32,022 nt of DNA, taken from contig RECR01000035.1 of assembly GCA_007693955.1 (NCBI GenBank), forward strand, positions 1 through 32,022, read 5' to 3'. This DNA comes from Gloeocapsa sp. DLM2.Bin57 (GTDB taxonomy: Bacteria; Cyanobacteriota; Cyanobacteriia; Cyanobacteriales; Gloeocapsaceae). The position numbers and the translations under genes were made by a program. Position 1 is the stretch's first letter. Each line of letters begins with the position of its first letter. Below the pieces are notes generated by a model. The model was not told the DNA's origin and ran no database searches. It saw nothing but the letters and a program-made list of their open reading frames with translations. Below, one piece after another: positions 8,115 through 26,854 of this stretch.

Positions 8115-8528
8115 TCAGGATTGTTTACGGCGAAAAGCTTCGAGACGAGAAGCGATCGCTTCTAGTTGCTCTAAACTTGAAGTATCTAAACTATCGGCAA
8201 AAGATGCTACCACGTCGGGATTACTGATGGCTAAGAACTTTTGTAATTGTTCGTAAGCTAAAATACCTTGAGCTTCTTGACGAGTAAGTAGGGGACGCCA
8301 ATAAAAGGCGCGTTTTTCTTTGATACAGCTTAACCATCCTTTTTGGGTTAAACGATGTAAAATAGTCGTTACTGAAGCGTAGGCTAATTCCCGTTCAGGA
8401 TCGCTTAAAATCTTCTCGTGTACATCTTTAACCGTGACAGTGCCTAATTCCCAGATTATATTGAGAATTTCTGTCTCTAATGGTCCTAGAGATGTTTTAC
8501 GAGGGCGATATTCTGGTAAAGGAGTCAT
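8115..8528 (-). CDS. BlaI/MecI/CopY-family transcriptional repressor
   Basis: A 137-residue regulator with the family winged-helix domain (about 13-85: LGPLETEILNIIWELGTVTV..., then ELAYASVTTILHRLTQKGWL as the recognition helix region) and a short C-terminal helical part for dimerisation. The family binds dyad operators in front of its own operon and is inactivated by proteolysis. It is the first gene of the string that continues through the M56 peptidase to ruvC, and candidate operator repeats lie in the upstream spacer. The inducer is not known; beta-lactam is only one possibility, since no beta-lactamase gene is visible. Confidence 0.9.
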   Translation of the reverse strand: MTPLPEYRPRKTSLGPLETEILNIIWELGTVTVKDVHEKILSDPERELAYASVTTILHRLTQKGWLSCIKEKRAFYWRPLLTRQEAQGILAYEQLQKFLAISNPDVVASFADSLDTSSLEQLEAIASRLEAFRRKQS

Positions 8529-8565
8529 AACTATTGATTATTTGAATTGTTTATGGGATCGTTTT

Positions 8566-8630
8566 AGTGTAAATATTATTATACTTAAGGCTTATGAAGA
8601 TCATTTTAATTCATACTTAATGGTTACACT
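8566..8630 (-). promoter_or_regulatory. candidate promoter and operators of the BlaI-type operon
   Basis: A minus-strand TATAAT lies at 8583-8578 within CTTAAGTATAAT (8589-8578), leaving a leader of roughly 40-45 nt to the repressor ATG. AGTGTAA (8566-8572) and TTACACT (8624-8630) are exact inverted copies on either side of the promoter, and ATACTTAA occurs at 8581-8588 and 8613-8620. Such paired sites around a promoter suit autorepression by the BlaI-type product, but no binding has been shown. Confidence 0.4.
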
Positions 8631-8660
8631 TGACTAACAGTTTAATTTACATAATTTTCT

Positions 8661-9389
8661 ATGACAACTTTTTTCATGTCTAATACTAAAAACGAGCAAC
8701 TCACTGAACAAATACCTAATCAAGAATCAATCCCTAATGAGCATCTAGAAGAAGAAGGTAATAAACCCTTTTTTCAAGCCATTACTACTCTTCACGGTAA
8801 GATTTACAAAGATGAGAAATTGGGTTACGCTATTAAAATAGGTAATTCTCTCTATCGTTTATTTATTTTTCCCGCTAAGTATAGAGGTTGGTTGAAACAA
8901 TTAGAAAAAGGTCCAGATACCCCTCTCTACTTGAGAGCTTATCCTAAATACCAAATTATCCCTCGTCAACCAGCTGAAATTTATTTTCAAATAGTAGCTT
9001 GGGGTGAAGAAAATCAATGGACAGAGCCAGGTATTTATATCTTTAGGGGTATATGGCAATTTGTTCCTCAAGTGAAAACACCCGTCATCTCTGTTTATCG
9101 CAATAAAGAAAGTACAGACTATACCGAGAAATTTAAAGCTACTCACCTTCCTATTTTAATGCGCCGTGAAGATGAAGCTGCTCCTTTTCGCTTTAACCCT
9201 AAAATGAGTAAGGAGGATTTACCCCCTCGATGGTTTATTCAAGCTAAATTTAAATTTATTCCCTCGAAAAACTGTTGGGGATGGGTGGAAGATATTGAAC
9301 CACCTACCCAAGCAATACCCCGTTATAAAAAACCCATCAAAGCTGATCCTAAAGCTAAAGAAAAGCCAGCCAAACCAACGACTAAATAG
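8661..9389 (+). CDS. conserved-looking cyanobacterial protein of unknown function
   Basis: A 242-residue soluble protein that I do not recognise. The first ~30 residues are acidic and polar. The core (about 38-215) is rich in aromatic residues and predicted strands ([48 protein letters not shown]). The end is a basic Lys-Pro-Ala tail. The alternating strand pattern recalls a beta-barrel such as an OB fold, but this is only an impression. A second ATG in frame at 8676 is an alternative start; neither has a clear ribosome-binding site. The 3' end overlaps the convergent purQ gene by 8 bp. It diverges from the BlaI-type operon. Confidence 0.7.
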
Positions 9390-11192: not shown

Positions 11193-12476
11193 TTAGACTA
11201 AAGAAGGTACAGGAATTTGTAGGTGAGGGTAGAGAGGAAAGCGTTCACATAATTTAGCTACACGCTGTTGACAATCACTCTTAACCTCTTCATTGTCAGG
11301 ATTTAACAAGCGATCGCTGATAATTTGTCCAATCTCTGTAAATTCTGTCTCTTCCATTCCCCGAGTGGTCATCGCTGGTGAACCTAAGCGTAATCCACTG
11401 GTTACAAATGGTGATTCCGTATCAAAGGGGACGGTATTTTTATTAGCTGTAATATTAATCCCACTGACTAGTTGATCAGCTCGTTTACCCGTCATACTAA
11501 TACAACGTAAATCCACTAGGATTAAATGGTTATCAGTTCCTCCTGAGACTAATTTAAAGCCATTATTAGTTAAACTACTACCCATAGCTTGAGCGTTAAG
11601 AATTACTTGTTGAGCGTAGGTTTTAAACTCAGGTTTTAAGGCTTCTCCAAAGGCTACCGCTTTAGCTGCGATTACGTGCTCTAAAGGTCCTCCTTGTGTT
11701 CCAGGGAAGACGGCTTTATCTAATTTTTTGCCTAACTCAGCATCCCGACAGAGAATTAAACCTCCTCTTGGTCCTCTGAGAGTTTTATGTGTAGTCGTCG
11801 TAACTACGTCGCAATAGGGCACAGGGTTAGGATGCTCTCGGGCTGCGACTAAACCTGCGATATGAGCAATATCTGCTAATAAATATGCTCCTACTTCATC
11901 GGCGATCGCTCTAAATTTCTCAAAGTTAATCACCCGAGGATAGGCTGAATAACCACAAATAATCAGTTTAGGACGCTCTTTAAGAGCTATGGCTCTGATT
12001 TCCTCATAATCAAGACTTTCTGTCTCTTTACTTACCCCATATTGAGACACGTTAAACCATTTTCCTGATACATTCACAGGAGAACCATGAGTTAAATGTC
12101 CTCCATGGGATAAATCCATCCCGAGAATTTTATCTCCAGGTTGCAGTAAGGTTAAAAATACCGCAAAATTAGCTTGTGCTCCTGAATGGGGTTGGACATT
12201 AGCACTAGCTGCACCAAATAGCTGTTTAGCGCGATCTATGGCTAGTTGCTCTACTTCATCGATATGCTCACAACCACCGTAATAGCGTTTACCTGGTAAA
12301 CCTTCAGCGTATTTATTAGTTAATACTGAACCTTGGGCAGCTAAAACCGCAGCTGAAGCGAAGTTCTCACTAGCAATTAATTCTAAATGACTTCTCTGAC
12401 GCTGTAATTCTCTATCTATAATCTCAGCTACCAGAGGATCTGTTTGCCTTAACAAGTCTAAGTTAGTATCAGTCAC
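11193..12476 (-). CDS. glyA: serine hydroxymethyltransferase
   Basis: A 427-residue PLP enzyme that interconverts serine and glycine while charging tetrahydrofolate with a one-carbon unit. The PLP lysine is Lys231 in [15 protein letters not shown]. Other family blocks are LELIASENF (31-39), [14 protein letters not shown] (55-68), and the cofactor aspartate and histidine in [10 protein letters not shown] (201-210). The full length is present. The start is GTG at 12476-12474, giving [14 protein letters not shown], the usual cyanobacterial N-terminus. It is read alone or with the genes beyond the 11141-11175 hairpin; the upstream spacer is shared with the divergent small-protein gene. Confidence 0.96.
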
Positions 12477-15450: not shown

Positions 15451-16095
15451 TTAAGAAGGATAATTTAAGCGAAAATTACTTAACTTCTCTGCGGTATCCT
15501 GTATTAAATATTTAACCTGTTCAAACTCAGGAAAGTTAAAATTAAGCGACACAGTCTGAAAATCAGGAAGGGTTGACCAAGTTGTTAAGACAAAAACAAT
15601 TACCGCGGTTAGAGCTAGTAACGCTTTAATAATATTACCAACTACTGAACCTACCACAATACCTAAACATACTTTAGCCGAGGTTTGTAGTCTAGGAATT
15701 AAAGCTAATTCACGACGATAAGCAAATTCTCCAATAAAAGCGCCCAATAAAGCGCCCAATAAAATACCAATAATTGGTCCACCGATAGGTAAAGCGGGTA
15801 ATAAACCCAACATCCCCACCACTAAACCAACAATACTACCAATTTGACTCCAGGAACTAGCCCCAAATTTTTTAACTCCCCAATAAGTAGCGAGAAATTC
15901 TACTGCTATACTAATCAACAGGATAAACAGAGTTACGATTAAAGATAACGCCATACCCTGAAATTGAGTAACCAATCCCCAGATTAAAATCGCTATTAAA
16001 ATCAAACCAACTCCAGGTATTGCGGGTAAGAGTGCGCCTAAAACACCAACAAGCATTACCGCAATTAAAATAAAATAGAGAATAATTAAACTCAT
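15451..16095 (-). CDS. DUF456-family membrane protein
   Basis: A 214-residue protein of glycine-rich helices: an N-terminal pair (about 4-24 and 24-62) with LGALLPAIPGVGLILIAILIW, and the repeat-like LGLLPALPIGGPIIGILLGALLGAFIGE (about 96-123), the hallmark of DUF456. Function is unknown; the two GALLPAIPG/GLLPALPIG-type segments suggest an internal duplication forming re-entrant loops. It follows murJ by 31 bp and precedes the RDD gene by 5 bp. Confidence 0.85.
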   Translation of the reverse strand: MSLIILYFILIAVMLVGVLGALLPAIPGVGLILIAILIWGLVTQFQGMALSLIVTLFILLISIAVEFLATYWGVKKFGASSWSQIGSIVGLVVGMLGLLPALPIGGPIIGILLGALLGAFIGEFAYRRELALIPRLQTSAKVCLGIVVGSVVGNIIKALLALTAVIVFVLTTWSTLPDFQTVSLNFNFPEFEQVKYLIQDTAEKLSNFRLNYPS

Positions 16096-20019: not shown

Positions 20020-20796
20020 ATGTTAAATCTCTCTGGAAAAAAAGCTTTAGTCACTGGAATCGCTAACAACCGCTCTATAGCTTGGGGTATAGCTCAACAA
20101 TTAGCCCAAGCAGGAGCCGAATTAGGGGTTACTTATCTACCTGATGAAAAAGGACGCTTCGAGAAAAAAGTTAAGGAATTAGTAGAGCCTCTTAATCCTA
20201 CCCTGTTTCTACCCTGTGATGTGCAAAATCAAGAACAAGTTAACGATCTTTTCAGTCAAATCGAAGCACAATGGGGAAAACTAGATATTCTCATCCACTG
20301 TTTAGCTTTTGCTAATAAAGACGACTTGACAGGAGATTTTAGTAATCTTTCTCGCGAAGGTTTCCAAACCGCTTTAGAAGTTAGTGCTTATTCTTTAACT
20401 TGTTTAGCTAAAGGAGTAAAGCCCTTAATGACATCTGGCGGTAGTATCGTTACTCTTACCTATCTAGGGGGAGTGCGAGTCATTCCTAACTATAACGTCA
20501 TGGGTGTAGCTAAAGCTGCTCTAGAAATGAGTGTGCGTTATCTAGCTAGTGAATTAGGATCATCAAATATTCGCGTCAACGCTATTTCTGCAGGTCCAAT
20601 CCGCACTCTAGCTTCTTCTGCTGTTGGGGGAATTCTTGATATGATTCATCACGTAGAAGAAAGAGCACCCCTGAGACGCACGGTTACGCAAACCGAAGTA
20701 GGTAATACTGCTGCTTTTTTATGTAGTGACTTATCTAGTGGTATCACAGGACAAATTATCTACGTAGATGCAGGTTATGAAATCATGGGGTTATAG
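20020..20796 (+). CDS. fabI: enoyl-[acyl-carrier-protein] reductase (NADH) FabI
   Basis: A 258-residue short-chain dehydrogenase fold enzyme that performs the last reduction of the fatty-acid elongation cycle. The modified nucleotide motif VTGIANNRSIAWGIA (11-25) is specific to FabI; the active site Tyr148, Tyr158 and Lys165 (TYLGG; YNVMGVAK) match the E. coli FabI Tyr-Tyr-Lys set. The C-terminal GITGQIIYVDAGYEIMGL is also typical. It is complete, read alone, and diverges from ntcA. Confidence 0.96.
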   Translation: MLNLSGKKALVTGIANNRSIAWGIAQQLAQAGAELGVTYLPDEKGRFEKKVKELVEPLNPTLFLPCDVQNQEQVNDLFSQIEAQWGKLDILIHCLAFANKDDLTGDFSNLSREGFQTALEVSAYSLTCLAKGVKPLMTSGGSIVTLTYLGGVRVIPNYNVMGVAKAALEMSVRYLASELGSSNIRVNAISAGPIRTLASSAVGGILDMIHHVEERAPLRRTVTQTEVGNTAAFLCSDLSSGITGQIIYVDAGYEIMGL

Positions 20797-20835: not shown

Positions 20836-20883
20836 ATGATTTTTATCCGCTCTCATGTACTTTGGATGATGGGAGTTGGGTAA
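20836..20883 (+). pseudogene. relic of the N-terminus of a DUF697-type gene
   Basis: An ATG with GGAG upstream (20823-20826) opens 15 codons ending at TAA (20881-20883). The peptide reads MIFIRSHVLWMMGVG. Its core RSHVLW and the following MG.G match residues 12-22 of the intact protein encoded at 26294-26854 (RSHVLWAMGGG), and 15 consecutive bases are identical (TCTCATGTACTTTGG). The identity extends into synonymous positions, so this is common descent and not a chance motif. The rest of the gene is missing. It sits on the far side of the defence-like cassette from the intact copy. Confidence 0.7.
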
Positions 20884-21066
20884 GCTGCTATTCATACGAG
20901 ATTGTTATCAAAAAGACTAAGTAGATAATCAGCAACTCTTTACAAAAGTTTACAAGTTATGTTGATAATTATTTATTTTTAGCTGACTATCTAGAGAGTA
21001 CAGTAGTTGCGACACTCTGCGCAAATTTTTTAGAGCATTATTTATAATCTGATTTTAATTTTAGTA

Positions 21067-21183: not shown

Positions 21184-21516
21184 ATGGTAATTCAACCCAC
21201 TCTCGAAGAACTTATAGAGCAAATATTTGCCCTTAATCAAGCTTGGAAACAAGCTTCTAACGTCTTATTAACTCCCAATGCAGGTTTAGTTATATCTCTC
21301 AAAGAGCTTAAAACTACTCTACAAATTCGTTTATTACGTAGTTATCCCACACGAGCTTATCTCCAAATCGATGCAGAAACAGAAAGTGAAGAGCCTCTCT
21401 ACGGTGTGATTATCTCTCCTCCCCTTGGTAAATATAGCAATGCAGCTCATCTACCCGTGCGCGTCGCTCAAACAAGATTAACTCCAACCGAATTAACTCA
21501 ATTAGTCCGTAATTAA
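21184..21516 (+). CDS. unknown 110-aa protein at the head of the Zorya-like operon
   Basis: I do not recognise this protein. From the ATG at 21184 it has 110 residues; the frame extends 27 bp upstream to a TTG at 21157, which is a poorer start. The N-terminal half is helical (PTLEELIEQIFALNQAWKQ); the second half looks alpha/beta (TTLQIRLL, PTRAYLQID, PLYGVIISPP). It has no membrane segment, signal peptide or zinc motif. It lies 24 bp upstream of the zorA-like gene on the same strand, downstream of the candidate promoter at 21067-21094. It may be an accessory or regulatory part of the system, or an unrelated conserved gene that shares the transcript. Confidence 0.65.
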   Translation: MVIQPTLEELIEQIFALNQAWKQASNVLLTPNAGLVISLKELKTTLQIRLLRSYPTRAYLQIDAETESEEPLYGVIISPPLGKYSNAAHLPVRVAQTRLTPTELTQLVRN

Positions 21517-21540
21517 ATATTATAGGAGTCTTTTTACTTG

Positions 21541-23709
21541 ATGTTTAGTAACATTATGACCCCACTTATTAACTCACTTAACATATTTTTTATTATTGGT
21601 GTTTGTGTTTTATTTATTGTTAGTTTGTTGATAGAAATAATAATTACTTATAATTATTACATTAAAATCAATAAAAGTTCTCAAGATGATATCAGAAATA
21701 ATTCTATTTTAAACAAGAGTAATGTACGTAGTCAACTTCACTTCATACCTACCTTACTAACTGCCTTGGGTATTTTAGGAACTTTTTCGGGTATTTTTAT
21801 CGGTTTACAAGGTATTAATTTAAATACTATTAACAGCAGCGATTCTCTGCTAGAAAATAGTATTGAATTATTGAAAGGCATGCAAACTGCTTTTGCAACC
21901 TCTCTTTGGGGATTAGGATCTGCAAGTTTATTTATTTTTATTTTAGCTATTAGTGAGACAATACGACGCCAAGAACGAAGTAAATATATTAGTAAAATAA
22001 AATCTACTCCACAACATACTAATGATCCTTTCCTCAACTATTTAACAGAAATTGCTAATAACACTGCTAAATTGAACACTTTTAATACTCAAGCTATTGG
22101 TCAAGAAGTTGCTGCTTCAATTAGACCAATTTTTTCTGAACTTAGTACAACTATCGTAGAACAACAAGCGCACTTGATTCAGGAACTAGACAGAAAGTTA
22201 ATGACAACAATTGAAACTACTAGAGAACAAAACAGAGAACAACAAAAACACTTGATTCAGGAAATAGATAGAAAGTTAATTAGACCAATTGCGGTTAGCT
22301 TAAACGAAAGTAATGCAGTGAATAGAGAATCATCCCAAGCAGTGTTAGAACTAAAAAATGAACTAGTAGGCTTCTCCTCTAATACTCAAGTTATTGGTCA
22401 AGAAGTAGCTGCTTCAATTAGACCAATTTTTTCTGAACTTAGTACAACTATCGTAGAACAACAAGCGCACTTGATTCAGGAACTAGACAGAAAGTTAATG
22501 ACAACAATTGAAACTACTAGAGAACAAAACAGAGAACAACAAAAACACTTGATTCAGGAAATAGATAGAAAGTTAATTAGACCAATTGCGGTTAGCTTAA
22601 ACGAAAGTAATGCAGTGAATAGAGAATCATCCCAAGCAGTGTTAGAACTAAAAAATGAACTAGCTGGCTTCTCCTCAAGTTTAACCACCTCTATTCAAAC
22701 TATTGAAGAATTCCAAACCGAAACCCTGACAAAATTACAAGATTTTGCGGCAAATCTCCAGGAAATATTAGCTCAGTTTCGCACAGATACTAAAGGTGTC
22801 ATGAGACAAGTAGCAGCAAAAATAAATCAGGGAGTACAAGAAAGTATCATAGCAATGGAAGCTCAAAGAGTAGCCTTTGCAGATAGTGCGCAACAAGCTT
22901 CAGATACTTTTAGGGGTATCAGAGAGGATTTAGAAGAAGCCCTAACTAATCAAGGAGAAAGACAAGCAAAGATGCTAACAAAGGTACAAGCTTCTACTGA
23001 AAGTATTCTAGAAAAAGCTAATCAGGCTTTTGTGGAACAATCTACTACCCTAACTACAGTAGGGAGAGAAGCATCAGATTTAATGCTTAATGCTAATCAT
23101 AACCTTAGTCAAACTCTTGGTAACATTGATAATATGCTTCAAAATACCCGCCAAACCGTCCAAGAGGAATTAGAGAGATTCAGAGACAATTATCAAACTT
23201 CCTTACAAGACTTTTTTGAACAACAAAATAATCTGTTAGAAGGAACTCTCGGACAACAAAGAGATGAGTTACGTGATGTAGTTAGGGAGTTGCAAAAAGT
23301 CTTTAGAGAAGATGCCCAAGCTATGGCAGAACAAGTTATTAACAGTATGGATAAAATTCAAACAACCACTGAAAGCGTGCAAACTTTAGCTAATACTATT
23401 GGTTTAACTTCAGGAGAACGTTTAGCACAAATGCAGGAAATTGCCCAAACTTTAGGTAGTGAATCCGTGAAAATTAATAACGCTTACGAAAGTTTAGTTA
23501 CTCGTTTTAACCAAGGTTTAGATACTTGGAATAACCACTTAACTAACTATTTTGAACAAGCTAATCAAACTTATAACCAAGGAAGACAAGATTCAGAAGC
23601 AGCGGTTACTTTAGTGTGTGAAAAACTTAATGAAACTTCTCAGGGTTTAATGGGAGTAGCAGAGTATTTGGTAACAGCTACTAGAGATTTAAATAATAAT
23701 GGTAAGTAA
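21541..23709 (+). CDS. zorA: ZorA-like motor protein (MotA/TolQ/ExbB domain with long coiled-coil tail)
   Basis: A 722-residue membrane protein. Helices lie at about 11-36, 66-92 and 116-143; the segment PTLLTALGILGTFSGIFIGL, followed by ELLKGMQTAFATSLWGLGSAS, is the MotA/TolQ/ExbB proton-channel domain in the form seen in ZorA. From about 165 to the end the chain is a Gln/Glu-rich helical, coiled-coil tail, as in type I ZorA, where the tail projects into the cytoplasm and is needed for defence. Residues 182-280 and 281-379 are nearly identical tandem copies. GGAG at 21525-21528 precedes the start; a TTG at 21538 is the alternative to the ATG at 21541. zorB follows after 2 bp. The assignment rests on domain layout and gene order. 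Confidence 0.85.
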   Translation: MFSNIMTPLINSLNIFFIIGVCVLFIVSLLIEIIITYNYYIKINKSSQDDIRNNSILNKSNVRSQLHFIPTLLTALGILGTFSGIFIGLQGINLNTINSSDSLLENSIELLKGMQTAFATSLWGLGSASLFIFILAISETIRRQERSKYISKIKSTPQHTNDPFLNYLTEIANNTAKLNTFNTQAIGQEVAASIRPIFSELSTTIVEQQAHLIQELDRKLMTTIETTREQNREQQKHLIQEIDRKLIRPIAVSLNESNAVNRESSQAVLELKNELVGFSSNTQVIGQEVAASIRPIFSELSTTIVEQQAHLIQELDRKLMTTIETTREQNREQQKHLIQEIDRKLIRPIAVSLNESNAVNRESSQAVLELKNELAGFSSSLTTSIQTIEEFQTETLTKLQDFAANLQEILAQFRTDTKGVMRQVAAKINQGVQESIIAMEAQRVAFADSAQQASDTFRGIREDLEEALTNQGERQAKMLTKVQASTESILEKANQAFVEQSTTLTTVGREASDLMLNANHNLSQTLGNIDNMLQNTRQTVQEELERFRDNYQTSLQDFFEQQNNLLEGTLGQQRDELRDVVRELQKVFREDAQAMAEQVINSMDKIQTTTESVQTLANTIGLTSGERLAQMQEIAQTLGSESVKINNAYESLVTRFNQGLDTWNNHLTNYFEQANQTYNQGRQDSEAAVTLVCEKLNETSQGLMGVAEYLVTATRDLNNNGK
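22084..22677 (+). repeat. 297-bp in-frame tandem duplication within zorA
   Basis: Copy 1 is 22084-22380 and copy 2 is 22381-22677. By eye they differ at about five bases, all near the ends, with roughly 270 central bases identical including synonymous positions. The period is exactly 99 codons, so the frame is kept and the coiled-coil tail is lengthened. Within each copy the peptide HLIQE-L/I-DRKL occurs twice, 26 residues apart, so an older and smaller repeat is nested inside the recent one. Confidence 0.95.
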
Positions 23710-23711
23710 TT

Positions 23712-24443
23712 ATGAAGCAATTTGAGCAATTTAACCCTGATTTTGACCTGGAAGATGAACAGGAACAAGAATCAAATATTTGGCTATCTATTAGCGATTT
23801 AATGTCAGGATTATTACTGTTTTTTGCTTTACTGTTTATTGCTACTCAAGCACAATTGCAACAAAGAACAGAAGAATTGCAACAAAAAACAGAAGAGTTA
23901 CGAAAATATCAAGAAGCGATGAAAAATCTACCTCTGATGATTTTAACTGAAATTCAAAAGGGGTTAGGTGGTAATAGTATTGATGTAGATACCGAAACAG
24001 GTGATGTTAGTTTAGATGATAAAATTCTGTTTGATGAAGGTCAATCCCAACTTAAACCAGAAGGAAAAGCTTTTCTGAATCAATTTATTCCTCTCTATAG
24101 TGAAGTTATCTTTTCTAAGCCTGAATTTGAGCAAGAAATTGTGAGAGTTATTATTGAAGGACATACTAGTTCTCATGGTCCTGCTGAATATAATCGTTCC
24201 CTCAGTTTAGCTAGGGCTTTAGCTGTAACTGATTACATTTTTCAACTCGATTTCCCCGACAAAGATCGTTTTGAACAGAAAATATTAATCAGTGGTCGAG
24301 GAGAAATTGATGCTAATCAACAAATAGATGATCCTAAAGATAGAAAGGTAGTTTTTCGTTTTCAATTGCACCGTCCTGATTTGAGTCAGTTTTTAGTAGA
24401 AAGGGAAGAAGAAATACAACAAGAGATTAACCAAGAAAACTAA
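23712..24443 (+). CDS. zorB: ZorB-like protein (MotB/OmpA-type peptidoglycan-binding stator subunit)
   Basis: A 243-residue protein: an acidic cytoplasmic N-terminus, one membrane helix (about 24-44) and a periplasmic OmpA/MotB-like domain (about 95-220). The helix carries Asp29 (ISDLMSGLLLFFALLFIA), at the position of the ion-carrying aspartate of MotB and ZorB. The periplasmic domain has VRVIIEGHTSSHGPAEYNRSL, LARALAVTDYI and DPKDRKVVFRF, the peptidoglycan-binding elements. With the ZorA-like protein it should form an ion-driven complex anchored in the wall. Size matches E. coli ZorB. The start codon is 2 bp after the zorA stop and zorC follows after 3 bp, so the three are one operon. Confidence 0.86.
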   Translation: MKQFEQFNPDFDLEDEQEQESNIWLSISDLMSGLLLFFALLFIATQAQLQQRTEELQQKTEELRKYQEAMKNLPLMILTEIQKGLGGNSIDVDTETGDVSLDDKILFDEGQSQLKPEGKAFLNQFIPLYSEVIFSKPEFEQEIVRVIIEGHTSSHGPAEYNRSLSLARALAVTDYIFQLDFPDKDRFEQKILISGRGEIDANQQIDDPKDRKVVFRFQLHRPDLSQFLVEREEEIQQEINQEN

Positions 24444-24446
24444 ACC

Positions 24447-25952
24447 ATGAACAAGATAAGATTTACCTCCATCGTTACTCCTCCTCCTCTTGAGGTAAAA
24501 CCAACGCAATTAACTGAACTAGCCAGAGGAATTACCACTAATCAGTGGTTACCTCCTGAATTGCCTCCAGGAATTACTATCGATAAATATTCTCTCCCTC
24601 GTTCATTAACTGAAATTCTTCAGGATTTAACAGACAACCGACAGACAAACATTACATTACTAGAGTGGATTCATTGTATTTATAATAAACAACATTGGGA
24701 TGAAAAACAACCACAGACTAAGCAAATCGTCACTACATCTAAGCGTATTTGGCGAGAAGCTAATGTTAATAGATTTCTACTTAAAATTTTATGCTCTTTG
24801 CTAATTACTGATTATGAGCATAAGAGAGAAAGATTGGCTCAGTCTTTAAGAAATACTTTTCCTACTTTAGTAAACCTTCAACCTGAAAACTTAATTGTTC
24901 AAATAACTAATTATCGCAAACAGGAACAATTTGATAAAATTGCGCAATTATGTCAGCAACATTGCCTCACACCTAAACAAATATTAAGCCAAGCTGAATT
25001 ACCCCTACGTCTTCCTAATCTTTTAGACAAGACTTATAACTATATAGCATCTAATCTGACTATCTGGAAAAGTACCAGTCAAGAGCAAGTAAATTGGTTT
25101 TTAGCTTGTCTTGATGAGATGGAAGTAACCCAAGAAATAAAAGCAGTAGAAAGTTTACTTAACAATTTTTCTACCTCGATTGATTCTCAATTCCTTCAAT
25201 CCATCAGAGAATGGCTAAGTAATAATTATAATTCTCAAGCAACTGGTTCTAAATATTATCAACTTTCTACGACTGCTAAACAAAATCTCAGAAAATTATT
25301 AGGTTTAGCTAATTACCGTGACTTTAAAACTTTAGTAGATATTATTTTAAATAAATTATCTTTAGAACATTGGGAAGCTAATCAACTAGAAGCACGTAAA
25401 TATTTTTGGTCTCACTATTCCGATCGCTTTGAAAATATTAGGATACTTTTGCCTCAGTCATCTTTAAATGCAATTGGTGATAAACTACAAAAAAAAGTTG
25501 ATATTCTTGAGGATGATGGTAGCGATCCTACAGAAGTTTGTATTTTTGATTTTGGCGATTGGTTTGTGGTAGAATTTTTCCGTAGTAGCGGTAGTGAAAC
25601 TCGCTTATTTAATCGATTTAAACATTTAGATATTAAAACAAAACTATTTGATTCAGCTAGTTTGTCTATCAAAAAATTACGTAGATTGGGTGGACATGTA
25701 CAAGATCATGTATTTTTTTGGCAATATTACTGTGAGCAATCTTTGCGTCAAAAAGGAATTCTACCTAACGAAGGAATCACTAAATTTAGAATTAACTCAA
25801 CAACGTCTAGAGATTATAAAAAACAGAGAGAAGGATTACCACCCCCGAATGGCCAACAAATAGCAGACAGAGAAAGAAAGTTAAAAAGATGGCAAGAAAA
25901 GATTAATAGTCTTGAAGCAGAAGCATTCTTATGGGAGCAATCGTATCAATAG
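24447..25952 (+). CDS. zorC: ZorC-like EH-signature protein
   Basis: A 501-residue soluble protein. The N-terminal two thirds are helical. The segment FWSHYSDRFENIRILLP (320-336), then FDFGDWFVVEFFRSSGSETRLF (367-388) with Glu376, and DHVFFWQYYCEQSLRQKGI (420-438) with His421, fit the EH_Signature domain named for its conserved Glu and His and found in ZorC of type I Zorya. In that system ZorC binds DNA and acts with ZorD after ZorAB signals phage entry. Here zorC is the last gene; no ZorD helicase-nuclease follows. The start is 3 bp after zorB. Length is somewhat shorter than E. coli ZorC. The family call is from motif memory and gene order. Confidence 0.78.
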   Translation: MNKIRFTSIVTPPPLEVKPTQLTELARGITTNQWLPPELPPGITIDKYSLPRSLTEILQDLTDNRQTNITLLEWIHCIYNKQHWDEKQPQTKQIVTTSKRIWREANVNRFLLKILCSLLITDYEHKRERLAQSLRNTFPTLVNLQPENLIVQITNYRKQEQFDKIAQLCQQHCLTPKQILSQAELPLRLPNLLDKTYNYIASNLTIWKSTSQEQVNWFLACLDEMEVTQEIKAVESLLNNFSTSIDSQFLQSIREWLSNNYNSQATGSKYYQLSTTAKQNLRKLLGLANYRDFKTLVDIILNKLSLEHWEANQLEARKYFWSHYSDRFENIRILLPQSSLNAIGDKLQKKVDILEDDGSDPTEVCIFDFGDWFVVEFFRSSGSETRLFNRFKHLDIKTKLFDSASLSIKKLRRLGGHVQDHVFFWQYYCEQSLRQKGILPNEGITKFRINSTTSRDYKKQREGLPPPNGQQIADRERKLKRWQEKINSLEAEAFLWEQSYQ

Positions 25953-26293: not shown

Positions 26294-26854
26294 ATGAGTC
26301 GCCTCACTGAAGCTAATGCTATTATTCGTTCTCATGTACTTTGGGCTATGGGAGGAGGATTGATTCCTATTCCCTTGGTAGATTTTGCTGCGGTAACAGC
26401 TATTCAATTGGAAATGTTGCAACAGTTAGCCGCTCTTTATGGAGTTGATTACACCAAAGATACTGCTAAAGCTTTTGTCTCTGCTCTGACTGGAACAACG
26501 ATCGCTCGTATTGGCGCAAGTATGCTTAAAGCTATTCCAGGTTTAGGAAGTATTATTGGTGGAGCTTCTATGTCGGTTATGTCGGGAGCTTCTACTTACG
26601 CTGTAGGACAAGTAGCAATCAATATGTTTTCTGCTTCTAGAAGTTTTAATGACTTAAATCCTGAAGATCTTCATAACGCTTATGAGCAAGCTTATGAGCA
26701 AGGTAAAAGCTATGTTTCAGGTTTACAAAATCGTGAAGACGAAGCAGCTAATATTTATCAATCTTTAGAGAAATTAGGTAAATTAAAAGAGCAAGGAATC
26801 TTATCAGAAGAAGAATTCCAAGCTAAGAAAAAAGAGTTGTTAGATCGTCTTTAA
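26294..26854 (+). CDS. DUF697-like membrane-associated protein with C-terminal SHOCT domain
   Basis: A 186-residue protein. Residues 1-125 form a hydrophobic, glycine-rich helical domain (RSHVLWAMGGGLIPIPLVDFAAVTAIQLEML; KAIPGLGSIIGGASMSVMSGASTYAVG) of the DUF697 type, often attached to or encoded near GTPases. The last ~30 residues (LEKLGKLKEQGILSEEEFQAKKKELL) are a SHOCT motif, a short helical oligomerisation unit. It probably associates with the membrane. Its function is unknown. A fragment of the same gene lies at 20836-20883. Its stop codon overlaps the convergent DUF29 stop. Confidence 0.83.
   Translation: MSRLTEANAIIRSHVLWAMGGGLIPIPLVDFAAVTAIQLEMLQQLAALYGVDYTKDTAKAFVSALTGTTIARIGASMLKAIPGLGSIIGGASMSVMSGASTYAVGQVAINMFSASRSFNDLNPEDLHNAYEQAYEQGKSYVSGLQNREDEAANIYQSLEKLGKLKEQGILSEEEFQAKKKELLDRL

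What the first reader, a model, noticed from the sequence alone, without database searches (positions are those of the whole stretch)
21184..25952. Zorya-like zorABC operon without the zorD effector
Three genes packed 2-3 bp apart encode a MotA/TolQ-type motor with a long tail, a MotB/OmpA-type partner with the channel aspartate, and an EH-signature protein: the A-B-C order of type I Zorya anti-phage defence. In described systems ZorC comes with ZorD (type I), or ZorAB comes with ZorE (type II) or ZorF-ZorG (type III). Here nothing resembling ZorD, ZorE, ZorF or ZorG follows; instead there is a repeat, a dead MNT gene and a DUF697 gene. It may be a reduced variant, a system using a distant effector, one that recruits the small 110-aa protein at its head or the DUF697-SHOCT protein, or a decaying locus.
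Basis: partly seen in the sequence, partly recalled or inferred. Interest (0 to 1): 0.85.

Follow-up and report, generated by a model that had tools for sequence, protein, structure and literature searches.

The report
Cyanobacterial Zorya with small ZorD-less partner
A motor-driven anti-phage system (Zorya) in cyanobacteria has no ZorD helicase-nuclease gene; in nearly every copy it carries a small 110-residue protein of no known family instead, which gives a new variant to test and a new candidate immune protein.

Summary
Window genes 21541-23709, 23712-24443 and 24447-25952 are ZorA, ZorB and ZorC by PADLOC profiles (E 8.5e-215, 1.4e-77, 5.8e-165). The ZorC model best matches the solved ZorC structure 8r68 (Z 12.7). 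No ZorD, ZorE, ZorF or ZorG was found among the window proteins scanned and no ZorD-like helicase in the operon position of any relative.

It is not a decayed three-gene leftover. The 110-aa gene at its head (21184-21516, here 'ZorX', a placeholder) is a fourth component. ZorX and ZorC occur in 23 and 28 of the same 386 cyanobacterial genomes and overlap in 22 (Fisher p 2e-29). In a separate scan, 55 of 62 ZorX loci, all cyanobacterial, have it directly before zorA or after zorC. Its distances track those of ZorA/B/C (r 0.87-0.93), and it moved once, as one clade, from front to back of the operon. It has no family in Pfam, NCBIfam, PADLOC or PHROGs and no clear fold match.

Best reading: a ZorD-less Zorya I variant with ZorX as obligate partner. 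Its exact role is inference.

The parts
21184..21516 (+). 'ZorX' (placeholder): 110-aa protein of no known family, first gene of the operon; predicted fold helix-helix-three strands-helix-helix
   Evidence: no hit in PADLOC, Pfam, NCBIfam, PHROGs or Pfam over 47 members; conserved next to zorABC; AlphaFold2 pLDDT 94.7
21541..23709 (+). zorA: MotA/TolQ-type motor subunit with about 600-aa cytoplasmic tail, 722 aa
   Evidence: PADLOC ZorA1 PDLC00597 8.5e-215; motifs; tail length
22083..22676 (+). in-frame tandem duplication inside the zorA tail: 2 x 297 nt (99 aa), 99% identical (22083-22379, 22380-22676)
   Evidence: the repeat finder D1; translation
23712..24443 (+). zorB: MotB/OmpA-type stator, 243 aa, channel Asp D29 at 23796-23798
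   Evidence: PADLOC ZorB1 1.4e-77; Pfam OmpA 1.2e-12; alignment
24447..25952 (+). zorC: EH-signature protein, 501 aa
   Evidence: PADLOC ZorC1 5.8e-165; Pfam EH_Signature 4.1e-20; model pLDDT 84 best matches 8r68 ZorC, Z 12.7 over 345 residues, next 6.3
25140..25685 (+). EH_Signature domain match within zorC (residues 232-413); invariant E363, E376, E384, R412, D420, H421 in 27 ZorC (last two just beyond the match)

Best explanation
A four-gene variant of Zorya type I (X-A-B-C) found in cyanobacteria. By analogy with studied Zorya: ZorA and ZorB form the inner-membrane, peptidoglycan-anchored ion-driven motor with a long cytoplasmic tail; envelope disturbance by an injecting phage activates it; the tail then recruits or switches on the soluble ZorC, which acts on the incoming DNA. 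Type I systems studied in the laboratory also need ZorD. Here ZorD is missing and the small, probably cytosolic ZorX is an obligate partner that makes ZorABC work without it, most likely as an adaptor or regulator of ZorC or of the ZorA tail, less likely as the catalytic effector itself. Shown here: identity of ZorA/B/C, absence of ZorD, conservation, linkage and co-variation of ZorX with the system. Inferred: anti-phage function in cyanobacteria, physical interaction, and the role of ZorX.
For: Same 386 genomes: ZorC in 28, ZorX in 23, overlap 22, Fisher p 2e-29. Species-wide scan: 62 ZorX loci, 50 directly 5' of zorA (usually 9-31 bp), 5 directly 3' of zorC; 43 with A, B and C all detected. 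The 3' position is one clade in both the ABC tree and the X tree (support 1.000 each), so the gene changed ends once and stayed. The one ABC locus of the first set without ZorX (L042) keeps the start of a ZorX-like gene before zorA (MELNPSLETLVIEINTIN, read, then broken), and its zorA tail is also shortened. Pairwise-distance correlation of ZorX with ZorA 0.93, ZorB 0.87, ZorC 0.91, 0 of 999 permutations reach it. Apart from the shared Zorya genes, no gene cluster occurs in more than 6 of 28 neighbourhoods. ZorX is under strong constraint: 14 of 110 columns invariant in 47 sequences, eight of them polar (N18 K22 K43 Q47 D63 E70 H89 R93), confident fold. In Serratia type I Zorya deletion of each component, ZorD included, abolishes protection (PMC11890865), so a ZorD-less system probably needs something in its place.
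Against: No experiment on any cyanobacterial Zorya was found in the held library, so defence itself is inferred from homology. Three genomes of one genus (G039, G201, G352) have zorAB and zorC on different contigs and no detectable ZorX. Several ZorX remnants lie alone. Distance correlation partly reflects shared inheritance of one operon. A trans-acting helicase is not excluded.
Confidence: 0.7

Rival explanations
1. ZorX is itself the effector: a small new nuclease (or other enzyme) that replaces ZorD's DNA-degrading activity and is recruited by the ZorA tail.
For: Eight invariant polar residues (N18, K22, K43, Q47, D63, E70, H89, R93) in a 110-aa protein are more than a plain scaffold needs; ZorD is absent.
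Against: No similarity to any nuclease family and no convincing fold match of any kind; ZorC with its invariant E and H residues could be the catalytic part.
Confidence: 0.25
2. A genome-encoded helicase acts in trans as ZorD, and ZorX is a bridge to it.
For: The genome holds a 1020-aa SNF2 protein matching ZorD profiles (PDLC00633 5.7e-140) and DpdE/DrmD/HmaA-type helicases; Nostoc sp. HK-01 has a DpdE/DrmD-like helicase just downstream of its zorC.
Against: The SNF2 match covers only the helicase part of ZorD, scores equally with DpdE, lies next to a trpF-like gene, and is present in 20 of 20 relatives searched, including the Zorya-less same-genus genome G121.
Confidence: 0.12
3. The locus is a decaying type I Zorya that lost zorD; zorX is a passenger.
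For: Truncated and split copies exist (L042, L043, L051, L063, L065, L066).
Against: All four window genes are intact; 34 further operons have all four genes at near full length; no zorD was detected in any; ZorX stays with the operon through a change of position.
Confidence: 0.06
4. The motor serves a housekeeping or envelope function rather than defence.
For: ZorB-like genes are also carried by most small genomes of family f31 in the sample, so MotB-like pairs can have non-defence roles.
Against: Those genomes have no detected ZorC or ZorX; X-A-B-C is patchy (about 6-7% of genomes), with variable neighbours, and sits next to other defence-type genes on a Nostoc plasmid.
Confidence: 0.1

Closest known systems
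Zorya type I (ZorABCD)
   Same: ZorA, ZorB and ZorC, in that order, with the channel Asp, OmpA domain, long ZorA tail and EH-signature protein
   Different: no ZorD; an additional small protein ZorX; ZorA is far from the E. coli-type profile (NCBIfam ZorA1 1.5e-3, ZorB1 3.6e-14, both far under cut-off)
Zorya type II (ZorABE)
   Same: ZorAB motor
   Different: no ZorE-like HNH protein found; ZorC present instead
Zorya type III (ZorABFG)
   Same: ZorAB motor
   Different: no ZorF or ZorG found; ZorC present

Membership tests
Zorya (any type): ZorAB core | MotA/TolQ-like ZorA with long cytoplasmic tail | tested here: met
   PADLOC ZorA1 8.5e-215; tail about 600 aa
Zorya (any type): ZorAB core | MotB-like ZorB with channel Asp and OmpA-type peptidoglycan-binding domain | tested here: met
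   PADLOC ZorB1 1.4e-77, Pfam OmpA over cut-off, Asp kept in all 22 sequences
Zorya type I | ZorC, EH-signature protein | tested here: met
   PADLOC ZorC1 5.8e-165, Pfam EH_Signature over cut-off, fold match 8r68 Z 12.7
Zorya type I | ZorD (SNF2 helicase with Mrr-like nuclease) in the operon | tested here: not met
   none in the window proteins scanned; a SNF2 probe that finds 8qy7 (1080-aa helicase, E. coli ZorD by my own knowledge) at 2.5e-71 finds none in the operon position of 27 + 62 loci
Zorya type I | phage protection by the system | not testable with these tools
   no experiment possible; no cyanobacterial test found in the held papers
Zorya type II | ZorE HNH effector next to ZorAB | tested here: not met
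   no ZorE profile hit
Zorya type III | ZorF and ZorG next to ZorAB | tested here: not met
   no ZorF/ZorG profile hit

The most novel reading that the evidence does not exclude
A separate, cyanobacteria-specific Zorya type in which a small protein of a new fold replaces the ZorD helicase-nuclease, as a new kind of effector or as a switch that turns ZorC into the sole DNA-acting enzyme.
Probability: 0.4. Interest if true: 0.8.

Novelty: new variant of a known kind. Interest (0 to 1): 0.62.

Why it matters
The studied type I Zorya loses protection when any one of its components is deleted (PMC11890865). A recurrent natural ZorABC without ZorD, nearly always joined to one small protein, gives a minimal system in which to ask what ZorC does and how the ZorA tail passes its signal to soluble partners. 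It would also add a family of no known kind to the list of immune proteins, and profile-based annotation that calls these loci by ZorA1/B1/C1 alone would overlook it.

Tried and rejected
DUF697-SHOCT gene (26294-26854) as effector: no homologue in any of 27 other Zorya neighbourhoods, and the same-genus genome G121 has it without Zorya: rejected. Empty-site comparison with G121 and G386: homology stops just after the fabI-like gene at about 20.80 kb in G121; G386's contig ends inside that gene, and in G121 the right flank was not found there, so no clean empty site. Fold search for ZorX: Foldseek best E about 0.1-0.2, VIA Z 5.2 at most, to unrelated small helical pieces; no ZorC or ZorD chain appeared among the rows shown, which excludes nothing. 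ZorX in viral contigs: none. ZorX and ZorC in plasmids: only Nostoc sp. HK-01. ZorC by sequence against the PDB: no ZorC hit; the match came only from the model. A comparison set of canonical ZorABCD was not obtained: the record named Tatlockia (L078) led back to the same cyanobacterial set. zorAB loci without zorC (L184-L186) are flanked by metabolic or transport genes, with an Uma2 protein near one: no alternative effector established. The Nature 2025 Zorya paper is not held.

Full report
Observation. The four ORFs are intact and co-directional: 21184-21516 (110 aa), 21541-23709 (722 aa), 23712-24443 (243 aa), 24447-25952 (501 aa), with gaps of 24, 2 and 3 bp. PADLOC assigns ZorA1 (8.5e-215), ZorB1 (1.4e-77) and ZorC1 (5.8e-165) and nothing to the 110-aa protein. 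Pfam finds OmpA in ZorB and EH_Signature in ZorC over cut-off. NCBIfam's E. coli-type ZorA1/ZorB1 profiles match only weakly, so this is a distant lineage. The ZorC model (pLDDT 84) has as best VIA match the solved ZorC 8r68 (Z 12.7, rmsd 9.2, 345 aligned; next row 6.3), although no sequence search reaches it.

No ZorD. The window proteins scanned with PADLOC give no ZorD, ZorE, ZorF or ZorG (a few ORFs, among them those at 8115-9389, 11193-12476 and 15451-16095, the fabI-like gene at 20020-20796 and the small ones past 29.3 kb, were not scanned). In the whole genome the best SNF2 protein (G000:C54) matches ZorD only over the helicase part, lies beside a trpF-like gene and is present in 20 of 20 relatives searched, including the Zorya-less G121: a housekeeping gene. 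The other large helicases best match HmaA, DpdE and DrmD.

The fourth gene. ZorC occurs in 28 of 386 cyanobacterial genomes. Clustering of 27 of their neighbourhoods plus the window shows that, apart from ZorA, B and C, one family recurs: the 110-aa protein, in 21 of 28; no other cluster reaches more than 6. ZorX was then sought on its own: 23 of the same 386 genomes, 22 of them ZorC carriers, Fisher p 2e-29. A scan of one genome per bacterial and archaeal species found 62 loci, all from records named as cyanobacteria except one labelled Tatlockia, whose phylum-mates are the same cyanobacterial set. Of the 62, 50 have ZorX directly before zorA, 5 directly after zorC, 5 alone (contig end or truncated in several), and 2 have no ZorX ORF by the threshold (one of these, L128, lies before an intact A-B-C). 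The pattern-based scan reaches only moderately close relatives, so distant ZorX elsewhere are not excluded.

Evidence for function within the system. The loci with ZorX at the 3' end form one clade in both the concatenated A-B-C tree and the ZorX tree (support 1.000). ZorX distances follow those of ZorA, ZorB and ZorC (r 0.93, 0.87, 0.91). The only A-B-C locus of the first set that is not at a contig end and lacks ZorX, L042, has the first 18 codons of a ZorX-like gene before zorA, then a break into repeats, and its zorA lacks part of the tail. A real exception is one genus (G039, G201, G352) with zorAB and zorC on separate contigs and no ZorX found.

What ZorX looks like. AlphaFold2 gives a confident model (pLDDT 94.7, pTM 0.86): helices 7-28 and 34-53, strands 58-63, 72-81, 84-91, helices 92-98 and 101-107. 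In 47 sequences I14, N18, W21, K22, K43, Q47, L50, L51, L60, D63, E70, H89, P91 and R93 are invariant. Median pI is 5.7 and the average hydropathy is about 0, so a soluble protein is likely. No family or clear fold match.

Mechanism. In Serratia marcescens type I Zorya, deletion of each component abolishes protection; ZorB peptidoglycan binding and the ZorA tail are needed, and ZorAB is proposed to recruit ZorCD (PMC11890865). The channel Asp, OmpA domain and tail are kept here, so the same sensing and signalling steps are the economical inference. With ZorD absent, ZorC is the only known soluble Zorya protein left, and ZorX is the only additional conserved partner. I favour ZorX as an adaptor or regulator of ZorC or of the tail (about 0.5), then ZorX as effector (0.25), then a trans helicase (0.12).

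Status. The ZorABC part is already within reach of PADLOC's Zorya profiles, so finding Zorya in cyanobacteria is not new. I found no paper in the held library that describes a ZorD-less type I system or the small protein; the main mechanistic paper in Nature is not held, so novelty is claimed with that limit.

Noticed in passing
window 22083-22676: The zorA tail carries a 99-aa in-frame tandem duplication, 99% identical at DNA level (2 x 297 nt). 99 = 9 x 11 residues, and the tail's hydrophobic period is about 3.6 (hendecad-like), not 3.5; a recent lengthening of the tail in register.
   Followed up: partly
window 20843-20893 and 26322-26372: A 51-nt stretch left of the operon is 75% identical to the start region of the DUF697 gene right of it; it may be a remnant of a second DUF697 copy and a trace of how the operon arrived.
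   Followed up: partly
L181, L182, L183 with L055, L056, L058: Three genomes of one genus (G039, G201, G352) carry zorAB and zorC on different contigs, with no ZorX found.
   Followed up: partly
L190 and the f31 rows: Most small (about 1.6-2.3 Mb) genomes of family f31, probably marine picocyanobacteria, carry one to three ZorB-like genes, in L190 next to a short ZorA-like gene and without ZorC: a possible core motor of unknown role.
   Followed up: no
L193 (Nostoc sp. HK-01 plasmid2): X-A-B-C on a plasmid predicted mobilizable, followed by a DpdE/DrmD-like helicase and a DrmMI-like methylase gene.
   Followed up: partly
L078 (record titled Tatlockia sp. MGR_bin123): The record's genome (G393) has the cyanobacterial set as its phylum-mates, so its label appears wrong or the bin is mixed.
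   Followed up: partly
L042 13200-13450: A zorX-like gene broken after about 18 codons by a run of short repeats, before an intact zorB and zorC and a zorA with a shortened tail.
   Followed up: partly
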